From contig JAFRYE010000024.1 of assembly GCA_017441265.1 (NCBI GenBank), positions 1 through 61,573 on the forward strand: a stretch of 61,573 bases of DNA, read 5' to 3'. The stretch is from Lachnospiraceae bacterium (GTDB taxonomy: Bacteria; Bacillota; Clostridia; Lachnospirales; Lachnospiraceae). A model generated the notes under the pieces. It made no database searches. It was given only the letters and a program-made list of their open reading frames with translations, and was not told the DNA's origin. Positions 2,148-51,833 of this stretch are shown in pieces. The first letter of the stretch is position 1; each line of letters begins with the position of its first letter. The translations under genes and the position numbers were made by a program.

Positions 2148-3353
2148 TCAGTCAAACAGGGAGATATCACGTCGGATCAATGACACAAACCGCTCTGCGA
2201 TCTCCGTCTTCTCATCCCAGAACGCCTTTCCCTCCGGCGTCACCATCGGACACTCCTTCTGCATCGGCACCGTGTATCGGCAGTAATGATTGTAGCAGTC
2301 GTAGAACGTCGCATTTTCCTTGCGGCCGCGCACGATCAGCGTGTCCATCACAAGCCCCAGCGCACCCATATCGTCGAGGCAATCGGCCTCCATCAGCATC
2401 AGCAGCGTGCGGTCGATGTTCGGGTCAGCCATACGGAATTTGTCGGAGTGTTCGCCGACCAGAGCACAAATGTACTCCGTGCGCCTTTCCTCAAAACCGC
2501 GGGACCGAAGATAGTCGCGGGTGATCGGGACGCCCGCTTTCGCGTGTCCCATCGGCGAATCCACGCCTCGTCCCACATCGTGGAAAACGGTCGCGATCAT
2601 CAGGTCCGCATATCGGATCCCGGTCTTGTCCGGCGTCGCCTCATAGAGGCGCTTCGCCCAGCCGAGAACACGTTTCGTATGCTCGAACCGACTGTACCCG
2701 AATTCCAATTTGTTTGCACCGCGGCCTCCCTCGGTCTGGTGATCTTCGAGGACGCTTCGCACAAACGCAAGCATTCCGGCATAGTCCTCATCTCCCAAAG
2801 CGGCGATCGCCGCGGCCTCGTCGCGGGCGAAGTCTCTCGCCCGAACGGCTTCGTCAGCAAGGTCGAAAACCCTCATCTCGCGCTCGATCAGCGCAGGGTC
2901 TCCGCCGCTGCGCAAACTGCCGCGATTCGCCCTTGAAAGAGCATACAGATTGTCGACCCACATCGGCACAAAACCTTCCTCGATCTCGTAGTCCTCCTGC
3001 GTGATCTGCACACGGCTGCCACCGATTTCCGCATAGTAATAATAATTCTCCTGCTCGAAGATCGCGTCCGAATCATGCGCATCGCGGTTTCGGCGAAGGA
3101 CGCTTCCGAACTCCTCAATCGTCCCGGGGATCACCTCGTAACCGCTCTCCTCCCGCACTTCGCGAACGAGCGCCTCCTGAGGGGTCTCTCCGGCCTCAAT
3201 TCCTCCGCCCGGAAACTTGTAATACCGGTATTTTTGCGAATACATCACCAAAAATCTGCCGTCTTTTTCAATGATCGCGCGCGCCGACGGGCGGCGATGG
3301 ACACGTCCTTCGGGATTATAATCCTTCGTGTCGATCGTAAACAATTCCTTCAT
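2148..3353 (-). CDS. Nudix hydrolase fused to an HD-domain phosphohydrolase
   Basis: About 401 residues in two enzymatic halves. The N-terminal 140 residues hold a complete Nudix box (GGIEAGETPQEALVREVREE, then SGY), the Mg2+-binding signature of nucleoside-diphosphate-X pyrophosphatases. Residues from about 215 on form an HD domain with FHDVGRG and a later GEHSDKF helix, typical of metal-dependent phosphohydrolases acting on nucleotides. The order suggests consecutive removal of phosphates from a (modified) nucleotide, which is inference. The start is the second ATG, 9 nt from GAGGAGG; the upstream ATG directly abuts the RBS. The next minus-strand gene upstream (yfcE, stop 3399) is 45 bp away, so co-transcription is possible. 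Confidence 0.8.
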   Translation of the reverse strand: MKELFTIDTKDYNPEGRVHRRPSARAIIEKDGRFLVMYSQKYRYYKFPGGGIEAGETPQEALVREVREESGYEVIPGTIEEFGSVLRRNRDAHDSDAIFEQENYYYYAEIGGSRVQITQEDYEIEEGFVPMWVDNLYALSRANRGSLRSGGDPALIEREMRVFDLADEAVRARDFARDEAAAIAALGDEDYAGMLAFVRSVLEDHQTEGGRGANKLEFGYSRFEHTKRVLGWAKRLYEATPDKTGIRYADLMIATVFHDVGRGVDSPMGHAKAGVPITRDYLRSRGFEERRTEYICALVGEHSDKFRMADPNIDRTLLMLMEADCLDDMGALGLVMDTLIVRGRKENATFYDCYNHYCRYTVPMQKECPMVTPEGKAFWDEKTEIAERFVSLIRRDISLFD

Positions 3354-3398
3354 CGAAAACATCCTCCTCGCTCAATGATCCTCCGGTTATTTTCCGGT

Positions 3399-3950
3399 TC
3401 AAAGGCTGTCTGCATCAAATCTCCCATATTCTTCCCCGTCGAGTGTTTTCCAGATGAACTGCATTCCGTCCAGCAACATATATCCGCGCGGGCTATCGGC
3501 CTTCGGAAGGGAGATCGATCCCGGATTCATATACACATATTCCCCGAATCTCTCACACGCGGAGACGTGAGTATGCCCGCAAAGCAGAATGTCGCCCGGT
3601 TTCATCGGCGGCAGCTTTTCCCAGTTATACACATGTCCGTGGGTCGCATAGACCATCCGGTCTCCCACCGGAACAAGCGCATAATCCGCGAGAATCGGAA
3701 AATCCAGCACCAGCTGGTCAACTTCCGCATCACAATTACCGCGCACGGAATAGATCTGCTCTTTCTTCTCATTCAGCATCGCGATCACCTGCTTCGGATC
3801 ATACTCCTCAGGCAGATCATTGCGCGGTCCGTGGTACAGGATATCCCCGAGAAGAAACAGCCGGCCCGCTTTTTCGTTTTCGTAAGCCTCCAACAGCATC
3901 CTGCAATATTTTGCAGAACCGTGAATGTCCGAAGCAATCATCATTTTCAT
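3399..3950 (-). CDS. yfcE: YfcE-type metallophosphodiesterase
   Basis: 183 residues, the usual size of the family. Calcineurin-like metal ligands are visible in order: SDIHG near residue 7, LGDILYHGPRND, GNCD, THGH and CGHTHV, followed by NPGSISLPK, which is characteristic of YfcE/MJ0936 phosphodiesterases acting on simple phosphodiesters. The start is the ATG 7 nt after GGGAGG; a longer frame upstream lacks an RBS. It probably acts in the cytoplasm. The physiological substrate is unknown. Confidence 0.88.
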   Translation of the reverse strand: MKMMIASDIHGSAKYCRMLLEAYENEKAGRLFLLGDILYHGPRNDLPEEYDPKQVIAMLNEKKEQIYSVRGNCDAEVDQLVLDFPILADYALVPVGDRMVYATHGHVYNWEKLPPMKPGDILLCGHTHVSACERFGEYVYMNPGSISLPKADSPRGYMLLDGMQFIWKTLDGEEYGRFDADSL

Positions 3951-4033
3951 ACTTGTGCCTCCCACATCATCGTTTTGATTTGGTATATCAAGCTTCTCTC
4001 GGATAAGGCACAAACCCGACAATCCGAAATATA

Positions 4034-5284: not shown

Positions 5285-5917
5285 TCAGCCTTTTTTCACC
5301 GGTTTCCCCTTTCGTTTGCTTAGCCGGATTCCCTTCAGATTCTGCTTGTAGTTAAAGATGTACCGAATAATAAGCAGACCCTGGGCAGGAAGGCCGATGA
5401 AAAAGATGTACCAGGGATGGGAATCGATCAGGTGCAGGTAGATGCACGCAGTGAAGGACCACACAAATATCGAGGAGTAGATGAACAGCAAAATATTCAT
5501 GGGCTCCTTGCGGTTAAAAAACCAAAGCACAAGCATGCACGCCGGCACACTCCACACAAACAGCTGCCATACATTGGCCTGGCGGGATAATTTCAAGTAA
5601 ATATACAACGCTGTCAGTATGAACCAGATTTCACAGCACAGGAAAATCTGCGACAGAACTTTCTGACCGATGCCGGAAGTTCGATTCTCCTCGGCGCCAT
5701 CCTCCCCATGCGCTTCCGTAATTTGAGAAACCGGCACATCAAAGACCTCGCTGAGCGCGTAGATCGTTTCAAGGTCCGGAACGACCTCTCCTGCCTCCCA
5801 ACGCGAGATTGCTTTGTCGGAATAATTGATCCGTCTGGCAAGTTCCGCCTGTGTCAGATTGTTTTCTTTCCGCAGTTTTAACAGATTTTGTGAAACAATA
5901 GCTTTAACATTTTCCAT
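5285..5917 (-). CDS. XRE-family regulator with C-terminal membrane domain
   Basis: 210 residues. Residues 7-62 form a lambda-repressor-like helix-turn-helix (LRKENNLTQAELARRINYSDKAISRWEAG). From about residue 88, four hydrophobic segments (IFLCCEIWFILTALYIYL, LFVWSVPACMLVLWFF, ILLFIYSSIFVWSFTACIYL, WYIFFIGLPAQGLLII) predict a four-helix membrane domain, ending in a basic tail. This architecture is common in Clostridia and suggests a membrane-tethered DNA-binding protein that could sense an envelope signal; that is inference. A GGGGAGGA sequence lies 16 nt upstream, rather far for an RBS. Confidence 0.82.
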   Translation of the reverse strand: MENVKAIVSQNLLKLRKENNLTQAELARRINYSDKAISRWEAGEVVPDLETIYALSEVFDVPVSQITEAHGEDGAEENRTSGIGQKVLSQIFLCCEIWFILTALYIYLKLSRQANVWQLFVWSVPACMLVLWFFNRKEPMNILLFIYSSIFVWSFTACIYLHLIDSHPWYIFFIGLPAQGLLIIRYIFNYKQNLKGIRLSKRKGKPVKKG

Positions 5918-6104
5918 ACCGCTATCATAGCAGTCCTCCCCTCGGAAATCAAGTGTTTATCGCATATTCCCGCTGTGGTGGAGTCCTCTCTCGCTGTGGT
6001 TCGGAGCCGTTTTTCAACCTGAGAGTCCTCTCTTCATCATTATCTTTACATAATGATGCGGTTTACGGAAAATGGTACTGACAAATCTCAAGGGGGAGAA
6101 CGCT

Positions 6105-7046: not shown

Positions 7047-7857
7047 AGAAGACAGGCTCCGGGTTCTTGCCCGCATCCGGGAATACGAGGCCCAGGGACG
7101 TTTCAACGAAGATGTCGAGGAGGACGCACCTGCGGCTCCCATCCAACCCGGCGAGGTGGACTACACCATAAAAAAGCTGTCCAGCAAGGCAAAGACGAAA
7201 GTCGCCAACTTCCTCGGGAAAGCATTTTTCGAGAATATGATCCGCAAGAACAAACTGATCATCAAAGAGGTTCGCGGTCTGGAAAATGCTACCGCTGTCA
7301 CAGGCGGAGCAATTGTTACGTGCAATCATTTTCATCTGAGCGACAACTATGCCGTGTACCGGACCATCAAGCCCGCGCTTAAGAAACGGCACTACCTGTA
7401 CAAGGTGATCAAAGAGAGCAACTACACCAATTTCAAAGGCCCTGTGCGTATTATGATGCGGCATGCCAACACGCTGCCTCTGAGCTCCAACTACGCGACA
7501 ATGCGGGAGTTTTTTGCGGGTATGAAGGTGCTACTTGACCGCGGCGAAAAGATTCTGATCTACCCCGAGCAGGCGATGTGGTTTAACTACAGAAAGCCCC
7601 GACCGCTCAAGGCCGGAGCTTTCAAATTTGCCGCCAAATTCAATGTTCCCGTGATCCCGGTCTTCATCTGCATGAAGGACTCCGATGTGCTCGACGATGA
7701 CGGTTTCCCCGTTCAGGAACTGTATGTTCACTACCTGCCCGCAATCTGTCCGGACAACACTCTCACCGTAAACGAGAACGCGCAGAGGATGATGGACCAA
7801 AACAGCAAAGCGTGGACGGAAGTCTACGAGGAATTCTATCAGGAAAAGCTTGTTTGA
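7039..7857 (+). CDS. PlsC-like lysophospholipid/glycerol-phosphate acyltransferase
   Basis: 272 residues. It has the acyltransferase motif I NHFHLSD (NHx4D), a motif-III-like YPEQAMW block and the following hydrophobic strand VPVIPVFICMKD. An N-terminal 70-residue charged extension precedes the domain. The ATG is 5 nt from AGAGG inside the end of the glycosyltransferase gene. Substrate could be 1-acylglycerol-3-phosphate, but the pairing with a GT8 enzyme suggests a glycolipid acceptor (inference). Confidence 0.82.
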   Translation: MAREDRLRVLARIREYEAQGRFNEDVEEDAPAAPIQPGEVDYTIKKLSSKAKTKVANFLGKAFFENMIRKNKLIIKEVRGLENATAVTGGAIVTCNHFHLSDNYAVYRTIKPALKKRHYLYKVIKESNYTNFKGPVRIMMRHANTLPLSSNYATMREFFAGMKVLLDRGEKILIYPEQAMWFNYRKPRPLKAGAFKFAAKFNVPVIPVFICMKDSDVLDDDGFPVQELYVHYLPAICPDNTLTVNENAQRMMDQNSKAWTEVYEEFYQEKLV

Positions 7858-7943: not shown

Positions 7944-9050
7944 CTATGGAAGATCCATCGGGTTAATCTGATAGACGATCTTGCGTCCTCTGCAGTCCTC
8001 CAAAGTATAATCCGGTGAGTATCGAATCCCGGTTACAACAAGTTCCCCGTTCTCATTGATCTCACCATATCCAAATTCCAGAATCCCGTCCGACAAATAG
8101 TGAACGGTATTGTAACGAAGAGCCGTTTTACTCACCCACAGGGAATCCTCGGTTGGCGTCCCGTTACGGTAAAACATATCGAAGTAATACTGTATGACAG
8201 GATCGATTCTCAAAACATCATCAAGCGTACACCCTTCCGTGATTTCCGAAAAATCTTCATGCTTTTTCAGTTGGCCGGGACAGATCAAAACCGGATACCC
8301 GACCAAAGCAAACAGATTGTTTTCCTCCGATGTAAACCAGAAAACACGCTCCCCATTTTCCGATGCGAAAGCCGTATAATACATTCCGTCAGGCATCTTT
8401 CGCGGTTGGATTTCCGGGAACGAATACAAAAGCGAACGCACAAGAGTCGTACCGTTTCCGTAGTTTTCATACACGCTGAAATCCTTTCCTATACCGACCA
8501 TTCTTTTCTGTCCGAGTATTTTTTCAAGCCATACCGCCGAATCGTATGTCTTAACGTCCAGTTTTACAAGGTCATTACATAAAGCAGCTTTACGTATGTA
8601 TTCCGCAACTTCAATGGTTGACATTGCAAGTATTTCTTCCCGCGACAACTGCGCCGGCTTTAACCATTCCGTCGGCGTGATCGTGGGTGATGGTTCAACG
8701 ACAATATTCTCACCCCGGATCTCAGCTGTGATCAATGCACCTTCCGTTGGCGTTGTGAATGACCGTTTTTCATCGTTTTGTTTTGTCTGTGAAAACGCTT
8801 TCCTTCGTAATTCATCAATGTGCTTAAAATTCTCGGGGAACCAATACACCGATTTCTTTATTGTTTCTGTCTCGTATACTCCTGTCTGTTCTGACTTTTG
8901 AAAGCCTACCCATTTTACATACTTGTACAAAACAGCGGAATACACCTTAGAACCGCCGTCTTCCAAGATGTCGACCTTAAACGGAATAAGCAGAACTGCC
9001 AACAGGATCAGCACCACTGACAGGATGATCAGCTTCGTTTTCTTTTTCAT
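7944..9050 (-). CDS. hypothetical membrane-anchored protein
   Basis: About 368 residues. One N-terminal transmembrane segment (LIILSVVLILLAVLLIPF, residues 6-23) is followed directly by DILEDGGSKVYSAVLYKYVKW, a pattern I recognise from a widespread clostridial family of uncharacterised surface proteins in which the same ...DGG-T-x-Y-x-A-LxYKxVKW stretch follows the anchor. The rest is extracellular, with no known catalytic motif. The ATG at 9050 is preferred; a GTG two codons upstream is possible. It is convergent with the acyltransferase gene and follows the cupin gene by 12 bp, so they may be co-transcribed. Confidence 0.65.
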   Translation of the reverse strand: MKKKTKLIILSVVLILLAVLLIPFKVDILEDGGSKVYSAVLYKYVKWVGFQKSEQTGVYETETIKKSVYWFPENFKHIDELRRKAFSQTKQNDEKRSFTTPTEGALITAEIRGENIVVEPSPTITPTEWLKPAQLSREEILAMSTIEVAEYIRKAALCNDLVKLDVKTYDSAVWLEKILGQKRMVGIGKDFSVYENYGNGTTLVRSLLYSFPEIQPRKMPDGMYYTAFASENGERVFWFTSEENNLFALVGYPVLICPGQLKKHEDFSEITEGCTLDDVLRIDPVIQYYFDMFYRNGTPTEDSLWVSKTALRYNTVHYLSDGILEFGYGEINENGELVVTGIRYSPDYTLEDCRGRKIVYQINPMDLP

Positions 9051-9062: not shown

Positions 9063-9563
9063 CTACTCACCATCAAGATAGTTCACTTCCGATTCCAGCT
9101 TAAACGATTTCTGCATCTCTCCGGCAAGAACCCGTACATTGCCGGACTCGGGATATACAACGACATCCGAAGCGGAAAATGTGTCGATATCCAGATAGAC
9201 TACCGGTGCATCCGAGGCGTTGGTCAGCATATGCCCTCCGTTTTCGTTCGGAGGGATTACAATGACATCTCCTTCTTTCACCTTGACGTCACCTTTCGGC
9301 GTCTTCAGGACTGCTTCCCCGGATATGATATAAAAGGCTTCCTCTTTGCCGAAATGCCGATGATACGGGTAATTGCTTTTCCCCGGCATCAGCGTGTAAA
9401 AATTCACGGCGAGCTGGCCCTCTCCGCTTCTGTACGGGGAGAACACTTCATTTTTCGAAAACTCGTACGACCGCTTGTGTTCCCCGGTCGGATCGTAAAA
9501 CTGATTCAGGTTTTTCCTTTCAAAGCCCGCGTCCTTCACGTTTTTAATGATTATGTCCCGCAT
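9063..9563 (-). CDS. cupin domain protein
   Basis: 166 residues with both cupin motifs: PYHRHFGKEEAFYIISGE (metal-binding H-x-H-x4-E) and GDVIVIPPNENGGHML (second G-D...H). Single-domain cupins bind a divalent metal and act as isomerases, dioxygenases or sensors; nothing here decides which. The ATG is 7 nt after GGGGAGG. It is upstream of the membrane-anchored gene at 7944. Confidence 0.8.
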   Translation of the reverse strand: MRDIIIKNVKDAGFERKNLNQFYDPTGEHKRSYEFSKNEVFSPYRSGEGQLAVNFYTLMPGKSNYPYHRHFGKEEAFYIISGEAVLKTPKGDVKVKEGDVIVIPPNENGGHMLTNASDAPVVYLDIDTFSASDVVVYPESGNVRVLAGEMQKSFKLESEVNYLDGE

Positions 9564-10952: not shown

Positions 10953-11686
10953 CAAAACACCCCCATCTTGCTGTCGCAGGCCCACTTTATGAGGACTTCG
11001 AACAGTTCATCAAAAGAGGCGGCGGTATACTTGATATCGTATTCGATCAACGCTCTTTTTATATCTCCGGACGGCATGAACCACACCGAATCCAGCGAAG
11101 CATTTTTCGCTCCCAGCATATCCGAAGACAGCGAGTCACCTATCATGATGCATGACGATCGGGGTTCTGCGATCCTATCAAGACAAGCATCGAAAAATGC
11201 AGCATCCGGCTTTGTCACGCCCATCTCCTCACTGATGAACAGATAATCTATGTACTTGTCAAGTCCGGTGGAAGCCATCCTGCCTTTCGCGTTTATCGTC
11301 GCACCGTTGGAGGCGATGTAGATCCTGGCGTCCGGTATACTTTCTTTCAGCTTTCTGACGAATTCCAAAGCGCCGTCCATCAAAACACCGTTTACGGACA
11401 TTGTCCGGATAAAATCATCATTGATCTTCAGCGGATCAAGAGCCGTCGCATCACCTTCACACAAAGAAAAAACGTAACGGAATCTCTTTACAAAAAGCTC
11501 CTGTCTCGTGATACTTCCTTTTTCCAGCGCCTGCCAAAGCGATTTGTTGTATTCCTTAAATGCCGAATATATCTCATCGGAAAATGAAAGCCCGTTTGCC
11601 CGCAGTACGATCCCGAGTGCTTTATACTCGGAAGCATGGAAATCCAGCAGTGTCTGATCAAGATCAAAGAGAAAGTTGTGATGCAT
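10952..11686 (-). CDS. yjjG: YjjG-like HAD-superfamily noncanonical nucleotidase
   Basis: 244 residues. HAD motif I is FDLDQTLLDF (nucleophile Asp), motif II is ASNG, and motifs III/IV are KPDAAFF and MIGDSLSSDMLGAKN. The LLDFHASEYKAL cap region and overall length match YjjG pyrimidine nucleotidases, which hydrolyse noncanonical pyrimidine monophosphates and so clean nucleotide pools. It is coupled to the downstream MATE gene by a 1-bp stop/start overlap. Confidence 0.82.
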   Translation of the reverse strand: MHHNFLFDLDQTLLDFHASEYKALGIVLRANGLSFSDEIYSAFKEYNKSLWQALEKGSITRQELFVKRFRYVFSLCEGDATALDPLKINDDFIRTMSVNGVLMDGALEFVRKLKESIPDARIYIASNGATINAKGRMASTGLDKYIDYLFISEEMGVTKPDAAFFDACLDRIAEPRSSCIMIGDSLSSDMLGAKNASLDSVWFMPSGDIKRALIEYDIKYTAASFDELFEVLIKWACDSKMGVF

Positions 11687-12682: not shown

Positions 12683-13768
12683 TCATACCACTCCCGATTC
12701 GAGTATTTCAATTCTCGGAGCATCACAGTCGATCTCCGTCAACGCCCCGGTGGGAAGTACGGTCATCGGCGTTCTGTGAACGAAATCCGCATTTTCCAGT
12801 ATTACGATATCCGGTCTGTTTATTTCCTTGCACATAACCTTCAGGATCGTTTCTTCACTGTCGTCATCCAAAGGGCCTGTGATCACGGCTTTCGCCTTAT
12901 CAAACACCCCGGCCGCGGCAAATGCACGAAGCTCATGTAATCCGGCTAACTTACTGCCGTAAATACTGCAGTGTTCCATCGCGATGACGGTATCTTCCCA
13001 AATGTCGGGCCCCGGAAAATACTTCGTCCCCATGATCTGCCAAAGAGGGCCTCCGCAAACCGCGATAACCTGCCCTCTGACTTTTCCGGATCCCTGCAAT
13101 ACTTTGTAGCCGGTTCCGGGTGTCCAGGGAATCGGGTCATTCGGATCCTCAATCCGATCATCATCAGGGAAGCGCTCGTATTGCACTTCTTTCATTCCTT
13201 CCCGGATCGTGTATGTAGTGTTCCAATCGATCGGTGTATGCTTTTCCGCCGGTTTGATCTCGCCGATCACTTCATCGGAAAATAAAGCCCGCCGGATCGC
13301 ATTTTCCGTATACTCATCAAGCTTCCCGGGCTGCGCGATCGGGGTTAGGACCGTGGGCCCGTAATACGCACGGACGCCTGCGTATGCAAAAACAGCCATC
13401 CAGGTTGCGATGTCGGAAAAGCCCATAAAAACCTTCGGATGATCATGGATGACCTGCGGATCGATATACGGAAGCACGCGATAAGAGTCATCTCCGCCTT
13501 GATTGCAGATGATCCCTTTGACGGAATCATTTTCCAAAGCCCACATCAGATCCTCGGCTCTTTTCTCGGGATGCTCATAGAGGTACTCGCTCCCGCAGAG
13601 CGCATTGGGCGTTTCGATCACGTTTACATGAAAGATCTTTTCGAATCTCCTTTTACCTAGCCGGTATCTTGGAAGCATATCTGCATCCCCGGCGCGGCCG
13701 CCCGAGATCGAAATAAAAGCTACGGTGTCGCCCTCGTTCAGTTTTGACGGAATGATCAACTTTTTCAT
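12683..13768 (-). CDS. S66 family peptidase, MccF-like LD-carboxypeptidase
   Basis: 361 residues. The family-typical opening (LNEGDTVAFISISGG), the catalytic serine elbow GFSDIATW and a later AMEHCS glutamate strand identify the serine peptidase family S66. Length and the VNVIETPNAL segment favour the MccF (microcin C self-immunity) branch over murein LD-carboxypeptidase LdcA; MccF cleaves the amide of processed aminoacyl-nucleotide antibiotics. The start is the ATG 7 nt after GGAGAG; 13 upstream codons lack an RBS. Confidence 0.85.
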   Translation of the reverse strand: MKKLIIPSKLNEGDTVAFISISGGRAGDADMLPRYRLGKRRFEKIFHVNVIETPNALCGSEYLYEHPEKRAEDLMWALENDSVKGIICNQGGDDSYRVLPYIDPQVIHDHPKVFMGFSDIATWMAVFAYAGVRAYYGPTVLTPIAQPGKLDEYTENAIRRALFSDEVIGEIKPAEKHTPIDWNTTYTIREGMKEVQYERFPDDDRIEDPNDPIPWTPGTGYKVLQGSGKVRGQVIAVCGGPLWQIMGTKYFPGPDIWEDTVIAMEHCSIYGSKLAGLHELRAFAAAGVFDKAKAVITGPLDDDSEETILKVMCKEINRPDIVILENADFVHRTPMTVLPTGALTEIDCDAPRIEILESGVV

Positions 13769-14388: not shown

Positions 14389-14832
14389 CTACACGTGGAA
14401 GCGCCTGCGAAGTTCAGCCGCAACGGCTCTCCCGCGGAAAATGACAGCTCCCGCGAAGAGAACAACGCTGACCATCAGACAGACTGCCCACGCAAGAGGC
14501 ATTTTACTCCTCACAAAACAACAGATGACACTCGGCACGACCCCAAGGAAAAGACCCGAGAGGAGATAGGCCATCGTATTACCGTTTTGGTCGATCAACG
14601 CAAGTACGAAATTCGCCGTGATCATGGCGGCCAGCGCACTCGGGATTACCAGATCGACAGTAATCTTCATGAACCCGAAGAAGTAGGCGGTGACACACCA
14701 GCCCGCGATTGTGAGCAGCACCAGCATGGTTACCTTGCCTGCCGACCCGGTCCCTGTCAGCTTGCTCTGGCACAGCGGGCATTTTACGAGATCACCCGCG
14801 ATCCCGACCTTGCAATAAGGACATCGTCTCAT
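14389..14832 (-). CDS. DUF6320-type zinc-ribbon membrane protein
   Basis: 147 residues. An N-terminal zinc ribbon CPYCKVGIAGDLVKCPLC is followed by four hydrophobic helices. Proteins of this shape (DUF6320) typically lie beside an alcohol-acetyltransferase-like gene and an alpha/beta hydrolase, as is the case here. GGAGG lies 7 nt before the ATG. It overlaps the stop region of the upstream broken acetyltransferase by 4 bp, indicating the original operon organisation. Confidence 0.72.
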   Translation of the reverse strand: MRRCPYCKVGIAGDLVKCPLCQSKLTGTGSAGKVTMLVLLTIAGWCVTAYFFGFMKITVDLVIPSALAAMITANFVLALIDQNGNTMAYLLSGLFLGVVPSVICCFVRSKMPLAWAVCLMVSVVLFAGAVIFRGRAVAAELRRRFHV

Positions 14833-43390: not shown

Positions 43391-44179
43391 TTATTCTGCC
43401 GGTTTTACCTCGGCGGCAGGAGCGGCAAAGCGCTCATAGCGGCATTGTTCGACGACGCTCTTTCCGAGGAGCGTGATCGCCTGCTTTGGGCAGAGGCTGA
43501 TGCAGCTGTAGCACATCGTGCAACGCTCCCCTGCGACGGCCTTACCGTCCCTGACGGAAAGATTTCCCGTAGGGCACCGTCCGGCGCAGAGGCCGCAGCC
43601 GACGCAGGCATCTCCGATCTTCAGTTTTTTGCTGTAATTTCGCGTCTTTCCGAAGAACCACAGCCGCTGTCCGAAGAGTCCGGCAAGATGTGCCGGGAAA
43701 CTGAGTCCTTCCCTCGGATACCGCCCGGCGGCAATCTCGCCGATCGACTTCTCAATCTTCCGATCCGCCTCCGCGATGATCTCACGGTTTTTCTCCGGCG
43801 ATTTCTTCAGCATCTTGCTGTCGCATACGCTGTCCGGCATGACAATCTGCAGTCCGCCCGTAATCTCCGCGCCGTATTTGCGCAGAAGCCGTGCCGCGCA
43901 ACCGGTGCCGTCTCCGGAGAACAGTCCCATGGTCGTAAGGCAGAATACCTTCTTACCCTTCCAAAGCGTTCCGTGGCTATCGATAAAGTCGCGTACCATG
44001 TACGGAATGTTGGAAAACTGCGTGGGATACGCGAGGAAGATCTCCTCATTTTCCGCAACTGCCGAAGCCGTGCCGGCGCTCCCCAGCGAAATCGCCTCCG
44101 CCTGCGGATCCAGTCCTTCCAGAAGTTTCTTGAGGCAGTGCTCGGTGTTGCCGGTACCGCTCAGATAAATGCCTACCAT
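43391..44179 (-). CDS. EFR1-family flavodoxin-ferredoxin fusion
   Basis: About 262 residues. N-terminal flavodoxin-like domain (GIYLSGTGNTEHCLKKLL FMN loop, YPTQFSNIPYMVRDFI), C-terminal two [4Fe-4S] motifs (CVGCGLCAGRCP and CTMCYSCISLCP). This is the EFR1 architecture, a soluble electron carrier of anaerobes. The RBS GGGGG is 9 nt from the second ATG; the first ATG is only 3 nt away. Lies 15 bp after a TetR gene and is probably its co-transcribed target. Confidence 0.86.
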   Translation of the reverse strand: MVGIYLSGTGNTEHCLKKLLEGLDPQAEAISLGSAGTASAVAENEEIFLAYPTQFSNIPYMVRDFIDSHGTLWKGKKVFCLTTMGLFSGDGTGCAARLLRKYGAEITGGLQIVMPDSVCDSKMLKKSPEKNREIIAEADRKIEKSIGEIAAGRYPREGLSFPAHLAGLFGQRLWFFGKTRNYSKKLKIGDACVGCGLCAGRCPTGNLSVRDGKAVAGERCTMCYSCISLCPKQAITLLGKSVVEQCRYERFAAPAAEVKPAE

Positions 44180-44194
44180 ATTCATTTTCCCCCT

Positions 44195-44843: not shown

Positions 44844-44877
44844 CCGTCATTTTCCGTTTGCGTCGGAAAATGACGGT
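44844..44877. terminator. terminator built from an inverted pair of the GGAAAATG word
   Basis: Perfect 13-bp stem CCGTCATTTTCCG / CGGAAAATGACGG with a 7-nt loop. It is followed by TTTTC on plus and by ACTTTTTT on minus. It ends the minus-strand gene at 44887 and insulates the tetR promoter. Confidence 0.88.
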
Positions 44878-46091: not shown

Positions 46092-46913
46092 TTACTTGTT
46101 CTTGATCTCGATCCGGTCGAGGATCCCCTGAATGCCGATGTTTCGATGCGTCAGGTACATCCTCATGACATCTTCGATCAGCCCCGCATCCGCACCGGTT
46201 TTCCGTTGTATTCTTCCGGCATCCCAGCCTTTGTCGATATATCTGACAACGGTCGCCACCAGTACCGCCGGATCCTCGTGGCTCTGCTTCGCAGCAGCCT
46301 TGCCGCTGTCGTCTCGCGCCGGATTGCTGCCCAAGACCGCCGTCTTTGCATGGCCGTAGTATACGGTGCGCGGCTTGCGCGAGAGAAGTTTCTCCCAGCT
46401 CTCGCCGATCTGCGTCCCCCGGTGCATCTCCAACTCATACAACGGGTTCAGATCCCCGACGAACAGACTGCCGTCATCGAGGGCCAGCGTGACGCTGTCG
46501 TCGCTGTGCCCGGGCGTGTGAAGGATCTCTCCTTCGATGCCGAACTCTTCCAGAAACCGCCGGCTGTCCGAAAGTGTAACAACACGCACCTTCGCGTCGT
46601 CGATCGGCCGGAACGCATGCCGGTTCTCTTTTCGGAAAATGTCGTCCGCCGCATGCACGTACTCCTTTTGCACATCGGCGACCGCGATGACCGCGCCGTG
46701 GTCGGCAATCTCCTGCGCAATCCCGCAATGGTCGGGATGAAAATGCGAGATCAAAACGGCATCGATCTTCTGCACCGGTATCCGCAGCTCGCCCATCGCC
46801 CTGCAGAACATATCAAACGTCCCTGCCCAGCCGGTGTCGAACAGAACGATCCCGCGCTCTCCCTCGATCAGATAGGTATTGGTATTGCCGTACCGAAGTT
46901 CATGGATTGTCAT
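46092..46913 (-). CDS. metallo-beta-lactamase-fold hydrolase
   Basis: 273 residues. Zinc motif SHFHPDHCG (HxHxDH), later TPGHSDDSVTLALDDGSLFVGDL and YYGHAKT give the remaining ligands. About 70 C-terminal residues (ATVVRYIDKGWDAGRIQRKTGADAGLIEDVMRMYLTHRN) look like a small winged-helix or accessory tail. Likely thioesterase, lactonase or nuclease-type MBL. RBS GAGGGGG; a GGAAAATG copy overlaps the RBS-start spacer. Confidence 0.83.
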   Translation of the reverse strand: MTIHELRYGNTNTYLIEGERGIVLFDTGWAGTFDMFCRAMGELRIPVQKIDAVLISHFHPDHCGIAQEIADHGAVIAVADVQKEYVHAADDIFRKENRHAFRPIDDAKVRVVTLSDSRRFLEEFGIEGEILHTPGHSDDSVTLALDDGSLFVGDLNPLYELEMHRGTQIGESWEKLLSRKPRTVYYGHAKTAVLGSNPARDDSGKAAAKQSHEDPAVLVATVVRYIDKGWDAGRIQRKTGADAGLIEDVMRMYLTHRNIGIQGILDRIEIKNK

Positions 46914-46992
46914 CTCATTTTCCCCCTCTAAGATACCATCATCTTACCACACCGGGGGGCTGTTGACCAGTGAGATCGCGCGGAAAAGGGAA

Positions 46993-47046: not shown

Positions 47047-47715
47047 TCATTTGCCGCGCTTGCGATAATCCTCGCGGATCTCCTCAAGGGCATCCTCGCA
47101 CTCGAACGCCGCGCTCATCTCTTTCGCGCTGCCGCAGGCGCGCGCCTTGCTCACAAGCTTCGACATTGCGGAGAAGTTCAGCTGCGTGCCGACGCTGTCG
47201 CACTCATAGCGGACCGCACGGCTCGCCGGTACTCCGAAGCGTCCGGCCACTTCGACAGCGTCGATGTTTGCGCCTAGGAAGATAAACTCCCAGCCAGCCT
47301 CCTTCTGCTGCTCGACCATCTTCTTTACCTTCGCGTAGTCGTATTCCTTGCTGGCATTTTCCATGCCGTCGGTGGTGATGATGAACAGCGTCTTTTCCGG
47401 CACATCCTCGTCGCGGATGTACTTGTGCACGTTGCGGATGTGGTGGATCGCGCCGCCGACTGCGTCGAGCAGAGCCGTGCAGCCGCGAACGTAGTAATCC
47501 TTGTCCGTGATGGGCTCGATCTCACCGATCGGTTTGCGGTCGTGCAGCACCTCGATCTTGTCATCGAAGAGCACCGTCGAGAAGAGCGCCTCGCCCTCTT
47601 CCTTCTTTTGCTTTGCGAGCATCGAATTGTAACCGCCGATTGTGTCGGCCTCCAGTCCTCCCATCGAACCGCTTCTGTCAAGAATGTAAATGATCTCAGT
47701 CAAACCCTTCTTCAT
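47047..47715 (-). CDS. von Willebrand factor A domain protein, TerY-like
   Basis: 222 residues. It has the MIDAS motif DRSGSMGG near residue 13, a threonine in GCTALLDAVG and TTDGMENASKEY as the third ligand. Small cytosolic vWA proteins of this type resemble TerY of tellurite/stress operons; they act as metal-dependent adaptors. The nearby HTH protein (49106) carries a domain that in Clostridia often accompanies such stress genes. Confidence 0.8.
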   Translation of the reverse strand: MKKGLTEIIYILDRSGSMGGLEADTIGGYNSMLAKQKKEEGEALFSTVLFDDKIEVLHDRKPIGEIEPITDKDYYVRGCTALLDAVGGAIHHIRNVHKYIRDEDVPEKTLFIITTDGMENASKEYDYAKVKKMVEQQKEAGWEFIFLGANIDAVEVAGRFGVPASRAVRYECDSVGTQLNFSAMSKLVSKARACGSAKEMSAAFECEDALEEIREDYRKRGK

Positions 47716-47819: not shown

Positions 47820-48449
47820 TCATCTCGTGAAATTCGTCCAGACGCGCTGTTCCGTCTCAGGTAACCCGATTTGCTCCCTGCCAAGAGCAATGCTCTTCAT
47901 CAAAAATACCATATTGCGCGCAAGCACACGCATGACCTGACAGCCCTCGTCGTCAACGCGTCCCTCGCCGGGCTCCCAGCCGTAGATATTGTTCCAGTAC
48001 TGGCTTGTCGCCACCGGCATGTTCGACAGCGTAAAGAACTTGTTGAGCTCGTCAAATGTCGCGGTAGCGCCGGAGCGGCGCGCACTCACGACACTGGCAC
48101 CGACCTTCAGGCTCTTGTCAAAATGCGAACTGTAAAAGATGCGCTGAAGCGCAGCAAGCAACGTTCCGTTGGCCGAGCCGTAGTATACCGGGGAACCGAT
48201 CACAAGGCCGTCCGCAGCCTCGAATTTGGCGGCGAGTTCGTTGACTTTATCGTCGAAGACACAACGCCCCGTTTTGCGGCAGGACTCGCAGGCGATGCAG
48301 CCGCGGATCGCGCTGCCGCCGATCTGAACGTTCACATACTCGACGCCGTTCTCCTCGAACACTTTCTCCATCTCGGAAAATGCCAGCGCAATGTTACCGT
48401 TTTTGCGCGGGCTTCCGTTGATCATCAAAACTTTAAACTTCTTCTCCAT
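47820..48449 (-). CDS. NADPH-dependent FMN reductase / flavodoxin family protein
   Basis: 209 residues. FMN phosphate loop NGSPRKNGN near residue 11, IRGCIACESCRKTGRC cysteine motif (iron-sulfur flavoprotein-like) and SPVYYGSANGTLLAALQR. Such proteins reduce quinones, chromate or other acceptors; the C-x2-C-x4-C set suggests an [Fe-S] cluster as in Isf proteins. Located 15 bp after the cyclase gene. Confidence 0.85.
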   Translation of the reverse strand: MEKKFKVLMINGSPRKNGNIALAFSEMEKVFEENGVEYVNVQIGGSAIRGCIACESCRKTGRCVFDDKVNELAAKFEAADGLVIGSPVYYGSANGTLLAALQRIFYSSHFDKSLKVGASVVSARRSGATATFDELNKFFTLSNMPVATSQYWNNIYGWEPGEGRVDDEGCQVMRVLARNMVFLMKSIALGREQIGLPETEQRVWTNFTR

Positions 48450-48464: not shown

Positions 48465-49079
48465 TCACAGTTTCAGTAATGTCGCGCGGCAGGGAGCTCC
48501 GTCCGAACCTCCCAGGTTGATCGGTGCCGCATGCAGCAGATACACGCCCCGGTCAACCGCCCCGAGGCGGATGCCCTCGAGGGGAATGATCCCCCGGTCA
48601 AGAAAAGCGAGATGAACCACGAGCGGCGCATCCTCCGGACCTACGGTCTGCGACTCATTGCCGTACAAAAAGATTCCGGCTTCACAGAAGATACAGGCCG
48701 CCTTGTCCGTGAGCGTCGCCTTTCCCTTCACGAGAATGCGCTTAGCCGCGTCACAGCCGGGAATTCCCGACTCCTGCTCCGCCTGCTTTGCCTCCGCTAA
48801 TATCCGCTTCGCGTCATCTACCGTCACCGGTCCGTCGTGCTCCGCGACGTAGGCGTAGCCGATCATTTTCCGAAGATCGATCTGATCGATCGTCTGCGCA
48901 TGATCCAGAAAATGATGCGGCGCATCCACGTGCGTACCGTTGTGCGCGCACATCTTAAAAGCCGTCAGATTGCAGACTGCGCCGTCGCTTTTGTTGAGTA
49001 TTTCGAAGCGCTCCGGAGCGGGGTCGCCCGGATATACGGCGCAGGAGAATACTTCCTGAGAGATATCATAGATTTCCAT
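48465..49079 (-). CDS. cyclase family protein (kynurenine formamidase-like)
   Basis: 204 residues. The metal-binding signature HNGTHVDAPHHF identifies the cyclase family PF04199, whose members hydrolyse N-formylkynurenine or cyclic amides. YPGDPAPE near the N-terminus is also conserved. The start is the ATG after GAGGAAAATGC, so a copy of the dispersed word forms the RBS region. Upstream HTH gene ends 26 bp away. Confidence 0.85.
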   Translation of the reverse strand: MEIYDISQEVFSCAVYPGDPAPERFEILNKSDGAVCNLTAFKMCAHNGTHVDAPHHFLDHAQTIDQIDLRKMIGYAYVAEHDGPVTVDDAKRILAEAKQAEQESGIPGCDAAKRILVKGKATLTDKAACIFCEAGIFLYGNESQTVGPEDAPLVVHLAFLDRGIIPLEGIRLGAVDRGVYLLHAAPINLGGSDGAPCRATLLKL

Positions 49080-49105
49080 GCATTTTCCTCTTAACCGACG
49101 CCGGA

Positions 49106-50332
49106 TCACGCTCCGAGAAGCGATTCGCCGTGGTCGTACAATGCCTCGTTGATAGTGTCGATGTCAAAGACCTCGTTGTCGATAAAATACTCGACGATCA
49201 GGTCAAACCGGCTGCTCGGCGACAGCGCATATCCTGCGCGGGCGAGCATGTCCTTCGTCTCGTCGAGGGACAGCCGCAGCGCTAATGCGAACGCGACCGC
49301 CGTCTGCTTCTTCGGGCGGTAATCCTCGTTGCTGCGGATCTTCGAGAAGAGCTTTCGGTCCGCTCCGGCGCGCTTGTACACCTCCGTATCCGTGAAGCCG
49401 CGCTCGTCGATCATGCGAAGCAGACTCTGTTGCCACGTATCCGCAAGCTGATCCACAGCCTCCTGCAGGGTGCGCTTTCGCTTTTGCGCATCGACCGAAA
49501 AAGACGCCGCATCCGCAGAGAGTTCCTCCTCCGCCTCGGCCAAAGGCTCCTCCATCGGAGCGGCCTCATCGCAAAGGACCTCAACGGACTCCTTACACTT
49601 CCCGGCTGCCTTCTTCGCGCTCTTTTTCTCCGCCCGAAGCATTGCCTTCCGGTCAAAGGGCTTTTCAGGCTCCGCCAAGCATGCCTCGGCGAACATGGCA
49701 GGCCTTGCCGATCCCGCCGCCGACGCACCGAGCAAAGCATCCCTATTCGACGTTCCGACCGGTGTTGCGCTCATTGCCTGCATGGCTCCGCACGGATTCG
49801 GCGGTTCCGGCACAAAATTCTTCTTTAAAAACTCGGCCAAGCCGTCCCACAGACGCTTGTGCTCGGCCTCCGAAATGTGCTCCCGCGCGCCCGTCGCCGT
49901 ATCCGCGGCTCGCAATGCCACACAGCGTTCTTCGAATGCATTTTCCGTATTCCGATCGGCGAATGAAAACTCCCGGTATTTTCCCCTGTCGCGCTTCCAA
50001 TACAGGTACAGCCACGGTCCGCTGCTTCCGCTCTCCGCCGAATCCTCGCGTTCCCTGACGGTTCCACCGATCAGAAGGCCTGTGAACTCCTTCCACTGCT
50101 CCTCCGACAGCAACACCGTGCCGGAGACCGTGATGTCGTCCTCGGTCAGCGGCCAGTGGTCGCCCTCGCGGGTCTCATGGTAAAAGAAGTGCTGCCCGCT
50201 TTCGACAAACAGGCGATATCTTTGAAATTCCGGCGGATTGGTTGAGGACGAGTACGTAAAATAAAAATCCGTGATCTCCTCCGCGGTCACATCCTTGCCG
50301 ACAATCCGCTTTTTTCTTCCGAACAGCCCCAA
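49106..50332 (-). CDS. protein with C-terminal XRE-like helix-turn-helix domain
   Basis: 408 residues. Residues 1-150 form an uncharacterised alpha+beta domain, 180-280 a low-complexity Ala/Glu/Lys linker, and 290-408 a conserved domain ([81 protein letters not shown]) that in Clostridia is attached to macro-domain and stress proteins. It is XRE-like but may bind partners rather than DNA. Start codon TTG, 6 nt after GGGGAGGAG. Confidence 0.75.
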
Positions 50333-50375
50333 ATGAAACTCCTCCCCTCATATTACAGGTAACCCGCGCAAGAAA

Positions 50376-51005
50376 TCAGTATCCGAGATCATCGTTGACC
50401 AGGATCACGTGGATCCGGCCTTCGTGGCGCGAAAGACGCGTGATCAGGATCTGGCAGCAGATGGAATCCGGCGATTTGCAATTCATGCAGGATCCCGTGC
50501 GCGTGCAGGGCGTTGACAGCCCGAACCGCTGCGCGTTGATCGGTGCAGCCACGTTGCGGGCGCGCTTCATCGCACTGTCCACATCCGGCGCAATCTTGTT
50601 CATGCCGACGATGAACACGACATACTTCGGTCCCTGCGCGATCGCAGAAACACGGTTTGCGTTTCCGTCGATGTTGATCAGCACGCCGTCCTCGGTCATC
50701 GCGTTGACGCTGGACACGAAACAATCCGCATCATAGGTCGCAAGCATCGCCTCGCGCTTGTTCGGCGTTGCGTCGCGGTCGATAAAGTCATAGCTACCGC
50801 TCCGAAGAGCCGCCGTGAGCCCGATCTCGGCCGCGCTCATACAGCCGCCCATGCCTACCGTAGCTCCCTCGGGGATCAGTTCCAGCGCCATCTGGAGCGC
50901 CTCCTCGCGGGTCTCCGCATAGTATCCGGTCATGTTCCGGGACTCCAGACCCTTGATCACCTTCTGCGCCAGCAGACGGTTTCGTTGCTTCGTCATCTCA
51001 TTCAT
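50376..51005 (-). CDS. LUD-domain lactate-utilisation-like protein
   Basis: 209 residues. KQRNRLLAQKVIKGLESRNMTGYYAETREEALQMALELIPEGATVGMGGCMSAAEIGL is the opening of the LutC/LUD (DUF162) family, with ARNVAAPINAQRF and CMNCKSPDSICC motifs. Related to the LutBC lactate oxidation proteins, but single LUD proteins are of unknown activity. ATG 7 nt after GGAGG. Confidence 0.87.
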   Translation of the reverse strand: MNEMTKQRNRLLAQKVIKGLESRNMTGYYAETREEALQMALELIPEGATVGMGGCMSAAEIGLTAALRSGSYDFIDRDATPNKREAMLATYDADCFVSSVNAMTEDGVLINIDGNANRVSAIAQGPKYVVFIVGMNKIAPDVDSAMKRARNVAAPINAQRFGLSTPCTRTGSCMNCKSPDSICCQILITRLSRHEGRIHVILVNDDLGY

Positions 51006-51023
51006 AGCCACACCTCCGTAAAA

Positions 51024-51833
51024 TCAGTTCAGCCACAATGCGTACGGCCCTTCCATCTCCGCGATCAACGGGCCGGCAGACTTCGCGTCGCTCTCGCAGA
51101 CAGCCAGCAGATAAACCGGTCCGGAAAATGATCTGTCCTCATACAGCAAAATGATGCTCTTGCTGTCTGCCTCGTAGACAATACTGCACGCGGATGCACC
51201 GCTCACGGCGGTCGCACCGGTCAGATCCGGAGTCACGCCGCTGCAGAGAATGATACCGGACTGCTCGAATCGCGCCGTCTCGTGCTCCTCGCCGAGGATT
51301 TCCTCCAAACGGCCGTCAAAAACCGGCTCAACGTTGAATTGAAGCGTGTAACCGCTGCGCAGATGCAGCGTCGCGGTCTGCGGCTCTACGGTGGTGACGC
51401 CCTCGACGGTCTTGTCCAAAGGCAGCAGATTCATGTAGTCGTAGATCTCGCGGAAGCCGGTCGACATAGTCCTGTCCAGCTTCTGCAGCTGGTAGACGCG
51501 GAAATCCCCTTTCGTATAGTAAAAACGGATCGTCGTCGTGTCCCCGTCGAGGATCTGCATATCGCTCATGCGCCGCTTGCTCGCGGCATACATATGATAC
51601 TTGTTCGCCATCTCCGCCAGCGTGGTAAACACTTCGGCCGGAACCGGATACTCGGTCGTCACCTGACGGTCGGCATGGGTCTCGCGCTTTTCGATCGTGA
51701 GTCTGCCGTCGTCGGAGTCACCGCGACGGGCTTCCGTCACCCAGTGCCCGCCGAGACTTCCGCCGCCCGTCGAGACACGGCAGCCAATCAGACGATCATG
51801 TTTGAATTTGTTAAACAGATTCCATACACACAT
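51024..51833 (-). CDS. hypothetical protein
   Basis: 269 residues, predicted soluble alpha+beta. Begins with a short hydrophobic segment, then RVSTGGGSLGGHWVTEARRG. No catalytic motif seen and no family recognised. ATG 8 nt after AAGGGAGAG. It precedes the LUD gene by 18 bp and likely shares its transcript. Confidence 0.55.
   Translation of the reverse strand: MCVWNLFNKFKHDRLIGCRVSTGGGSLGGHWVTEARRGDSDDGRLTIEKRETHADRQVTTEYPVPAEVFTTLAEMANKYHMYAASKRRMSDMQILDGDTTTIRFYYTKGDFRVYQLQKLDRTMSTGFREIYDYMNLLPLDKTVEGVTTVEPQTATLHLRSGYTLQFNVEPVFDGRLEEILGEEHETARFEQSGIILCSGVTPDLTGATAVSGASACSIVYEADSKSIILLYEDRSFSGPVYLLAVCESDAKSAGPLIAEMEGPYALWLN

What the first reader, a model, noticed from the sequence alone, without database searches (positions are those of the whole stretch)
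2312..51130. Dispersed 8-9-mer GGAAAATG / CGGAAAATG at about 48 copies: an uptake-sequence-like or other genome-wide signal
By eye I count about 48 copies of GGAAAATG on both strands between 2312 and 51130 (about 2 expected in the whole window). About 30 extend to CGGAAAATG (0.5 expected) and about 17 to CGGAAAATGA (0.1 expected). Examples: 6067, 8354(-), 9174, 11579, 14436, 16434, 18098, 21828, 27244(-), 28109(-), 30641(-), 34593, 36412(-), 40409(-), 44848(-), 44865, 48864(-), 51123. Orientation is balanced (about 22 versus 26), so this is not a KOPS- or AIMS-type strand marker. Copies occur in several codon frames (GAA AAT Gxx, CGG AAA ATG, xCA TTT TCC), both sense and antisense, and about a fifth are intergenic or in RBS regions, so codon bias does not explain them. 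Density and behaviour resemble Neisseria DUS or Haemophilus USS. I know of no described repeat of this kind in Clostridia.
Basis: partly seen in the sequence, partly recalled or inferred. Interest (0 to 1): 0.85.

Follow-up and report, generated by a model that had tools for sequence, protein, structure and literature searches.

The report
Uptake-sequence-like word in Clostridia
A nine-letter DNA word is scattered about a thousand times through the genome of a Clostridium and, in related 'dialects', through most of its sister species examined; it most likely works as a password for taking up DNA of the bacterium's own kind, a trait that as far as I found is reported only from two families of Gram-negative bacteria.

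Summary
GGAAAATG occurs 49 times in the window (3.8 expected); CGGAAAATG 1042 times in the 2.585 Mb genome against 9 for the reversed word, evenly on both strands. It is not codon usage: in 883 kb of the genome, 451 coding copies against 54.5 after synonymous shuffling, all six frames enriched, intergenic density twice coding. Strand polarity is slight (312:266). Over-representation falls with mismatch load (11.7x, 2.2x, 1.0x). Among genomes sampled the signal is confined to the genus. In a ComEC tree of 18 genomes, nine of a clade of ten use mainly GGAAAATG; a clade of five uses GGAAAATG and GGCAAATG; two species lack it. Type IV pilus, ComEA, ComEC and DprA genes are present in the window's genome. 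Best reading: a DNA uptake sequence, independent of Neisseria DUS and Pasteurellaceae USS. Uptake and receptor are not shown. Unresolved or contrary: no excess of inverted pairs, word-free gaps no commoner than chance, the pilus cluster itself depleted, two species with the machinery but no word, and no DprA match in the genome richest in the word.

The parts
1529..1536 (+).
2312..2319 (-). GGAAAATG
5908..5915 (-). GGAAAATG
6067..6074 (+). extends to CGGAAAATG
7281..7288 (+). GGAAAATG
8354..8361 (-). extends to CGGAAAATG
9174..9181 (+). extends to CGGAAAATG
11579..11586 (+). extends to TCGGAAAATGA
12790..12797 (-). GGAAAATG
13300..13307 (-). extends to CGGAAAATG
13528..13535 (-). GGAAAATG
14436..14443 (+). 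extends to CGGAAAATGA
15057..15064 (+). GGAAAATG
15191..15198 (-). GGAAAATG
16434..16441 (+). extends to CGGAAAATG
16910..16917 (-). extends to CGGAAAATG
18098..18105 (+). extends to CGGAAAATG
19046..19053 (-). extends to TCGGAAAATGA
19910..19917 (+). extends to TCGGAAAATGA
21828..21835 (+). extends to TCGGAAAATGA
22591..22598 (+). GGAAAATG
25580..25587 (-). extends to CGGAAAATG
26258..26265 (+). GGAAAATG
27244..27251 (-). extends to TCGGAAAATGA
28109..28116 (-). extends to TCGGAAAATGA
28480..28487 (+). extends to TCGGAAAATGA
30641..30648 (-). extends to CGGAAAATGA
32367..32374 (-). extends to CGGAAAATG
33212..33219 (-). GGAAAATG
34593..34600 (+). extends to CGGAAAATGA
35141..35148 (+). GGAAAATG
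36412..36419 (-). extends to TCGGAAAATGA
37882..37889 (-). GGAAAATG
38834..38841 (+). GGAAAATG
40068..40075 (+). GGAAAATG
40200..40207 (+). extends to CGGAAAATG
40409..40416 (-). extends to TCGGAAAATGA
44047..44054 (-). extends to CGGAAAATGA
44183..44190 (-). GGAAAATG
44848..44855 (-). extends to CGGAAAATGA; left half of an inverted pair with 44865
44865..44872 (+). extends to TCGGAAAATGA; right half of an inverted pair with 44848, 9 bases apart, not both inside genes as called
46634..46641 (+). extends to CGGAAAATG
46916..46923 (-). GGAAAATG
47355..47362 (-). GGAAAATG
48375..48382 (+). extends to CGGAAAATG
48864..48871 (-). extends to TCGGAAAATGA
49081..49088 (-). GGAAAATG
49939..49946 (-). 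extends to CGGAAAATG
51123..51130 (+). extends to CGGAAAATGA; last copy in the window
51131..61573 (.). word-free stretch of 10.4 kb to the end of the window, the longest in the genome sample; its right part holds a reverse transcriptase of type UG19 and a type I restriction subunit HsdR
   Evidence: one gap over 10 kb was seen and 0.87 expected among 602 gaps, so it is not more than chance allows

Best explanation
CGGAAAATG (noncoding copies: T-rich upstream, TCGGAAAATG(A/C)) is the recognition word of a self-DNA uptake system for natural transformation. In the window's dialect the strict part is G.AAAAT (position 2 and positions 4-8 of the nine); both dialects together share AAATG behind GG(A/C). 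Proposed mechanism: during competence the type IV pilus binds double-stranded DNA, and its tip complex of minor pilins (or another surface DNA receptor) prefers fragments that carry the word. Retraction by the PilT-like motor brings DNA through the wall, ComEA holds it, ComEC passes one strand in, and DprA hands it to recombination. Recombination of fragments that carry the word makes it spread and persist (molecular drive), at changing sites but high density, wherever coding constraint allows. A change of receptor preference gives a dialect (GGAAAATG versus GGCAAATG). SHOWN here: the word, its statistics, the dialects, and the genes of the machinery. INFERRED: that the word promotes uptake, that the pilus carries the receptor, and that drive maintains it.
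For: Abundance: 1042 CGGAAAATG in 2.585 Mb against 9 for the reversed word. Not codon usage: 451 coding copies against 54.5 (max 66 of 20 synonymous shuffles); reversed control word 8 against 11.5. In relatives GGAAAATG exceeds every one of 20 shuffles in 12 of 14 genomes tested and GGCAAATG in 10 of 14, the reversed controls in 1 and 2 of 14. Little polarity: 312 leading, 266 lagging (54%, p about 0.06 by my arithmetic). Intergenic 1.08 per kb, coding 0.58 per kb. Mismatch load 0, 1, 2: 11.7x, 2.19x, 0.98x, outer positions tolerant, most core changes near or below expectation, e.g. CGGAGAATG 0.45x, CGGAAGATG 0.43x; PMC1939737 (passages) reports a decline with mismatch load for H. influenzae and N. 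gonorrhoeae uptake words. Range: 22 genus genomes have 63 to 1060 copies; the 245 other genomes sampled from the order have at most 184. Dialects largely follow a ComEC tree. Spacing slightly more regular than random, CV 0.918 against 0.991 (sd 0.040), reached by 21 of 1000 simulations. Aligned words in high-count relatives kept in 21 of 56 cases against 256 of 1079 for composition-matched 8-mers, Fisher p = 0.017. Machinery in the own genome: PilB, a PilT-like ATPase, PilC, prepilin peptidase, PilM and five N-methyl pilins on one contig, ComEA and ComEC about 3 kb apart, DprA.
Against: No uptake or binding experiment exists. G258 and G264 have pilus, ComEC, ComEA-type and DprA genes and no clear enrichment. 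G256, with the most copies (1060), has no DprA match although 95% complete. Full-length PilB-type matches were found in 17 of 22 genus genomes; the five without (G246, G253, G259 in two pieces, G261, G262; 79-85% complete) include word-rich ones. The pilus cluster is depleted of the word: 4 against 29.2 expected from the pooled density in 7 genomes (26 if each genome's own density is used, my arithmetic), which an uptake model does not predict, though PMC5031613 (passage) says DUS are under-represented in hypervariable surface genes. Close inverted pairs, common in terminators of Neisseria and Pasteurellaceae (PMC13020248, passages), are not in excess: 8 close pairs, 6 inverted, among 324 copies. 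Word-free gaps over 8 kb number 3 against 3.2 expected. Site conservation is modest, aligned sites recur across relatives, and in the lower-count relatives it equals the control (8 of 37 against 207 of 1003).
Confidence: 0.75

Rival explanations
1. A chromosome-organising, repair or methylation site (a HIP1-like iterated word of unknown function): a cytoplasmic DNA-binding protein or methyltransferase reads the word and its density is selected for.
For: Even, strand-balanced, genome-wide distribution in coding and noncoding DNA; the function of HIP1 in cyanobacteria is unsettled (recalled).
Against: The word is not palindromic, unlike HIP1 (recalled). Single-base dialects within one genus and decline with mismatch load fit an exchanged uptake word better. 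Contiguous asymmetric 9-mers are unusual as restriction-modification sites (recalled).
Confidence: 0.12
2. A Chi-type recombination hot spot read by AddAB or RecBCD.
For: Short, non-palindromic, over-represented word; Chi words differ between taxa (recalled).
Against: Chi words are biased to the leading strand (recalled); here 312 leading and 266 lagging, and 23:26 in a window whose GC skew keeps one sign. The twofold intergenic excess and paired dialect words are not expected. AddAB genes were not looked at.
Confidence: 0.06
3. A relic: an ancestor had uptake specificity, which is now lost, and the words are decaying.
For: Counts vary from 63 to 1060 in the genus. G249, with 96 copies, has its ComEC match in two pieces and no DprA match, but is only 80% complete. 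G256 has no DprA match.
Against: In the window's genome the exact word is far more over-represented than its one-mismatch forms (11.7x against 2.19x), and core changes, which decay would also produce, are mostly not enriched. The machinery genes read as open frames in the own genome.
Confidence: 0.05
4. An RNA-level or codon-level artefact: codon-pair bias, ribosome-binding site plus start codon, or terminator stems.
For: Some frames hold most copies (sense frame 2: 163, expected 22.6), and GGA..ATG looks like part of a translation start.
Against: All six frames are enriched 4- to 29-fold over synonymous shuffles, 233 sense and 218 antisense; no excess of inverted pairs.
Confidence: 0.02

Closest known systems
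DNA uptake sequence (DUS) of Neisseriaceae, receptor ComP
   Same: About a thousand or more copies of a short non-palindromic word on both strands, in genes and between them; phylogeny-linked dialects with a conserved core (PMC3630211, passages including the abstract); type IV pilus machinery.
   Different: Unrelated word (DUS GCCGTCTGAA, PMC13020248 passage); Clostridia, with no secretin among the pilus-cluster proteins scanned (the genome was not searched for one); no ComP homologue sought; no excess of inverted pairs; no uptake data.
Uptake signal sequence (USS) of Pasteurellaceae
   Same: Nine-letter word (PMC5031613 passage) of comparable density (recalled); over-representation that falls with mismatch load (PMC1939737, passages); copies frequent in the 5' part of genes, as PMC2346458 (part 1 of 3 read) reports for the reverse-complement USS: here 66 of 212 antisense and 62 of 231 sense copies lie in the first fifth, where my start calls may be too long.
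   Different: Unrelated word (USS AAGTGCGGT); no long flanking motif, only weak T preference upstream; different phylum.
Sequence-independent competence pili of monoderms (e.g. Streptococcus pneumoniae)
   Same: ComEA, ComEC, DprA and a type IV filament; in S. pneumoniae the tip pilins FimT and PilW bind DNA (PMC12040237, discussion section read).
   Different: PMC12040237 states that uptake in almost every competent species apart from Neisseria and Haemophilus is sequence-independent; here the genome carries a strong candidate uptake word. A separate PilT-like retraction ATPase is present.
HIP1, Chi, KOPS and other genome-wide words (recalled)
   Same: Short over-represented words.
   Different: HIP1 is palindromic; Chi and KOPS are strand-biased; neither holds here.

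Membership tests
DNA uptake sequence / uptake signal sequence (functional class) | Hundreds to thousands of copies of a short non-palindromic word, far above expectation, genome-wide | tested here: met
   1042 CGGAAAATG against 9 for the reversed word in 2.585 Mb
DNA uptake sequence / uptake signal sequence (functional class) | Both orientations alike, no strong replication polarity | tested here: met
   531:511 by contig strand; 312 leading, 266 lagging in 883 kb, a slight excess, p about 0.06
DNA uptake sequence / uptake signal sequence (functional class) | In genes and between them, not explained by codon usage, denser between genes | tested here: met
   451 coding against 54.5 shuffled; 1.08 per kb intergenic against 0.58 coding
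DNA uptake sequence / uptake signal sequence (functional class) | Over-representation falls with mismatch load; strict core, tolerant periphery | tested here: met
   11.7x, 2.19x, 0.98x for 0, 1, 2 mismatches; position-wise table; largest core excess 2.4x (A to C at position 4)
DNA uptake sequence / uptake signal sequence (functional class) | Dialects that follow phylogeny | tested here: met
   GGAAAATG in nine of a ComEC clade of ten, GGAAAATG plus GGCAAATG in a clade of five, background counts in G258 and G264. Exceptions: G260 mixed within the clade of ten; G248, sister of the two word-poor genomes, has moderate counts of both words. One-gene tree, midpoint root, 18 of 22 genomes.
DNA uptake sequence / uptake signal sequence (functional class) | Competence genes present | tested here: met
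   T4P cluster, ComEA, ComEC, DprA in the own genome. Across 22 genus genomes: ComEC 20 (split in two), short HHH_3 protein of ComEA type 22, DprA 20 (not G249 and not G256), full-length PilB type 17
DNA uptake sequence / uptake signal sequence (functional class) | Scarce in recently acquired DNA | tested here: inconclusive
   Longest word-free gaps include a stretch with defence genes and a low-GC island, but gaps over 8 kb number 3 against 3.2 expected
DNA uptake sequence / uptake signal sequence (functional class) | DNA with the word is taken up or transforms better | not testable with these tools
   needs a cultured member of the genus
Neisserial DUS (by descent) | Word GCCGTCTGAA or a dialect of it | tested here: not met
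   the enriched words are unrelated (top 9-mers)
Neisserial DUS (by descent) | Receptor ComP | not tested
   no search for ComP was made; five N-methyl pilins of unknown role
Pasteurellacean USS (by descent) | Word AAGTGCGGT or its variant | tested here: not met
   the enriched words are unrelated (top 9-mers)
Chi site | Strong leading-strand bias (recalled) | tested here: not met
   312:266
HIP1-type iterated palindrome | Palindromic word (recalled) | tested here: not met
   CGGAAAATG is not palindromic (sequence)
DUS/USS in transcription terminators (common, not defining) | Excess of closely spaced inverted pairs | tested here: not met
   8 pairs with at most 40 bases between, 6 of them inverted, among 324 copies; about 10 expected for random placing (my arithmetic)

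The most novel reading that the evidence does not exclude
A third, independent origin of sequence-specific DNA uptake, and the first in monoderm bacteria: a genus of Clostridia (at least one member from a rumen) whose type IV pilus tip reads GG(A/C)AAATG words, with two dialects that set a partial reproductive barrier between sister clades.
Probability: 0.6. Interest if true: 0.92.

Novelty: new variant of a known kind. Interest (0 to 1): 0.82.

Why it matters
[quoted passage not shown] An uptake-word genome in Clostridia would show that the trait arose a third time, probably without an outer-membrane secretin, and so would separate what is essential (a surface receptor and recombination) from what is accidental. 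A genus with two dialects, an intermediate species and two species without the word is a natural experiment on how such words arise and change. In practice it suggests that Clostridia without genetic tools may be transformable if the donor DNA carries the right word.

Tried and rejected
Codon bias, RNA signal and polarity hypotheses were tested and rejected. Excess of inverted pairs: looked for, not found. Exclusion from mobile DNA: looked for by gap statistics; inconclusive. A tyrosine-recombinase search of the own genome gave one hit and was not pursued. Rfam search of the window: 0 matches at gathering threshold. Presence or absence of pilins as an explanation of word-less genomes: all 9 genomes searched list five N-methyl matches, so no lead. 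Orthologous-site conservation over all relatives is 30 of 107 against 487 of 2402 for permuted words, and clearer only in high-count relatives. Literature: (listings, capped at 12-30 papers; one search had 924 papers and 147) and an exact-word search (0 papers) showed no report of uptake words in Firmicutes; preprints and most subscription papers are not covered.

Rows dropped before counts: two short unreadable stretches of one relative (G255); in the position table genomes with under 75 kb in hand, in the shuffle test those under 55 kb; the ComEC tree uses 18 of 22 genomes (two without a match and two with split matches left out). L001-L008 (own genome, small) were not used in the statistics. 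In the gene-position test genes under 450 bases were left out. One search was given 20 of the 80 loci. In one search the group of eight high-count relatives holds L009 and G254, very likely the same genome, so seven genomes.

Mended on review: the clade description (G260 mixed, G248 moderate, root not established), the missing DprA match of G256, the PilB count, the control words, and the sampling of the order.

Full report
Observation. GGAAAATG occurs 49 times in the window, 23 on the + strand and 26 on the - strand, against 3.8 expected from 100 dinucleotide shuffles; 31 extend to CGGAAAATG (1.96 expected under an order-3 Markov model) and 17 to CGGAAAATGA (0.64). It is the top-scoring 8-mer and 9-mer pair of the window. 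In the whole genome (G000: 2,585,061 bases, 79 contigs, 97.4% complete, 4.35% contamination), CGGAAAATG occurs 531 + 511 times against 4 + 5 for the reversed word.

Organism. The 80 closest places encoding the window's glutamate synthase small subunit are mostly in Clostridia MAGs, many from ruminants. The genome in which L009 lies (Lachnospiraceae bacterium RGIG8148, water buffalo rumen) has the same counts, 492/513 and 5/2, as genus member G254, so the two are very likely the same genome. A sporulation/germination (Germane) domain protein lies beside comEC. The monoderm state is inferred from Clostridia and was not tested.

Taxonomic range. In 22 genus genomes CGGAAAATG ranges from 63 (G264) and 73 (G258) to 1060 (G256). 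Of 246 genomes drawn from the order (G000 included, no other genus member among them), none but G000 exceeds 184, in a 3.5 Mb genome with 62 reversed-control copies. Of 20 genomes reached through named loci (20 of the 80 loci), RGIG8148 has 1005 and the other 19 have 0 to 181.

Not codon usage, not RNA, little polarity. In 883,404 bases of the own genome (24 pieces, window included; simple codon-score gene caller, 667 genes, 87% coding) there are 578 GGAAAATG. Coding copies number 451 in six frames (21, 49, 163 sense; 23, 105, 90 antisense), against 54.5 on average and 66 at most in 20 synonymous-codon shuffles. The reversed control word gives 8 against 11.5. Intergenic density is 1.08 per kb against 0.58 coding. 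Leading:lagging by local GC skew is 312:266 (an earlier 483 kb sample agrees: 174:150). Spacing is slightly more regular than random: CV 0.918 against 0.991 (sd 0.040), reached by 21 of 1000 simulations.

Shape of the word. Of 71 noncoding copies, 82% have C at -1 and 52% T at -2, with a weak T preference further upstream and A or C after the word. Over-representation of CGGAAAATG and its neighbours is 11.7x for 0, 2.19x for 1, 0.98x for 2, 0.94x for 3 and 0.99x for 4 mismatches. Tolerated positions are 1 (4.5-8.8x), 3 (3.4-9.5x) and 9 (1.7-4.9x); changes at position 2 and at positions 4-8 are near or below expectation apart from mild excesses (at most 2.4x, A to C at position 4); CGGAGAATG is 0.45x and CGGAAGATG 0.43x. 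PMC1939737 (passages) reports over-representation falling with mismatch load for H. influenzae and N. gonorrhoeae uptake words.

Dialects. CGGCAAATG is scarcer than CGGAAAATG in G000 (155 against 1042) but about equal or commoner in some others, e.g. G246 445 against 324, G260 431 against 453, G257 221 against 212. In 14 genus genomes with at least 55 kb in hand, GGAAAATG in genes exceeds all 20 synonymous shuffles in 12 (not G249, G258) and GGCAAATG in 10 (not G254, G256, G258, G266), e.g. G246 37 against 3.5, G260 27 against 2.9, G265 25 against 3.5. The reversed control words exceed their shuffles in 1 and 2 of 14: in G264 10 against 5.2, in G258 13 against 4.2, in G265 12 against 5.5. G264's weak excess (20 against 11.9, and 14 against 7.5) is therefore no more than its control shows, and G258 has none (10 against 7.3, 3 against 2.8). 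A maximum-likelihood ComEC tree of 18 genomes (midpoint root) gives a clade of ten, nine of them dominated by GGAAAATG (G253 and G259 with more GGCAAATG than the rest) and G260 mixed; a clade of five with both words; and a group of G248 (115 and 75 copies per Mb of the two 9-mers) with G258 and G264 (28/16 and 33/22 per Mb). Direction of change is not established.

Site turnover. At BLAST-aligned sites between the first 483 kb of the own sample and eight sets from seven high-count relatives (mean DNA identity 75-82% in aligned parts), the word is kept in 21 of 56 cases against 256 of 1079 for 8-mers of the same composition (Fisher p = 0.017); in the other genomes 8 of 37 against 207 of 1003, and in G258/G264 1 of 14 against 24 of 320. 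One own site can recur in several relatives, so cases are not independent. Density is kept with modest site conservation.

Machinery. In the own genome one cluster holds PilB with an MshEN domain, a second T2SSE ATPase in the PilT position, PilC, two pilins, prepilin peptidase, PilM, a 248-aa protein and a third pilin, then a 620-aa protein and two further N-methyl pilins; FimT- and PilW-like roles for these are my guess from position and size. ComEA (SLBB plus HHH_3) and ComEC lie about 3 kb apart, and DprA elsewhere. Across 22 genus genomes: ComEC 20 (in two pieces in G249 and G255; none in G261 and G262, 82% and 79% complete); a short HHH_3 protein of ComEA type 22; DprA 20 (none in G249 nor in the word-rich G256); full-length PilB type 17. 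No secretin appeared among the pilus-cluster proteins scanned, but I did not search the genome for one.

What does not fit neatly. (a) The pilus cluster itself is depleted: 4 copies against 29.2 expected from pooled density over seven genomes (26 with each genome's own density, my arithmetic; homologous loci, so not independent). PMC5031613 (passage) says DUS are under-represented in hypervariable surface genes and the accessory genome, which may cover the pilins but hardly PilT or PilC. (b) Close inverted pairs are not in excess, unlike the terminator use of DUS/USS (PMC13020248, passages). (c) Word-free gaps: the longest are the window's right end with a UG19-type reverse transcriptase and HsdR, a low-GC stretch in C21 and the pilus cluster, but their number is what a Poisson process gives. 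(d) G258 and G264 have the machinery without the word; G256 has the word without a DprA match.

Explanation and rivals. A word read on the DNA itself, exchanged between cells and so subject to drive, accounts for strand balance, independence of frame, intergenic excess, mismatch-load decline, high density with changing sites, and dialects by clade. Natural transformation with a sequence-preferring receptor is the known process with these features, and genes for it are there. Chi-type sites fail on polarity; an RNA or codon origin fails on the shuffles; a methylation or nucleoid site remains open (about 12%).

Novelty. [quoted passage not shown] My nine searches of the open PMC library (listings only, capped) showed no uptake word in Firmicutes. 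I therefore file this as working like DUS/USS, not as a member of either by descent, and as new in a new phylum.

Noticed in passing
window 57099-59204 (-): Reverse transcriptase matching PADLOC RT_UG19 over nearly its whole length (E 1.1e-135), a candidate anti-phage DRT system, next to a type I restriction subunit.
   Followed up: partly
window 59334-61259 (-): HsdR-like protein that matches its families only from about position 388 on; the window ends 314 bases upstream, so the N-terminal part is missing or lies elsewhere.
   Followed up: no
L177 10735-18580 and homologous pilus clusters of six relatives: The type IV pilus gene cluster is nearly free of the word (4 against 26-29 expected in seven genomes); unexplained.
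   Followed up: partly
own-genome sample: After masking GGAAAATG the unrelated 8-mer GTAGGCGT/ACGCCTAC still stands out (59 against 11.9 expected).
   Followed up: no
window 29432-30661 (-): Leucine-rich-repeat-type surface protein resembling internalin J in part (NCBIfam 150.6 bits, far below the cut-off of 1700).
   Followed up: no
L106 14965-19416 (-): 1483-aa protein with 13 matched stretches of the Listeria-Bacteroides repeat, inside a low-GC, word-free stretch.
   Followed up: no
G249: Genus member with few copies of the word has its ComEC match in two pieces and no DprA match; may be loss of competence or an incomplete assembly (80%).
   Followed up: no
L240 1931-10300 (contig C21): Low-GC word-free island (gap G+C 0.437, genome sample 0.55); one ABC ATPase, no Pfam match in the other eight of nine proteins scanned.
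   Followed up: partly
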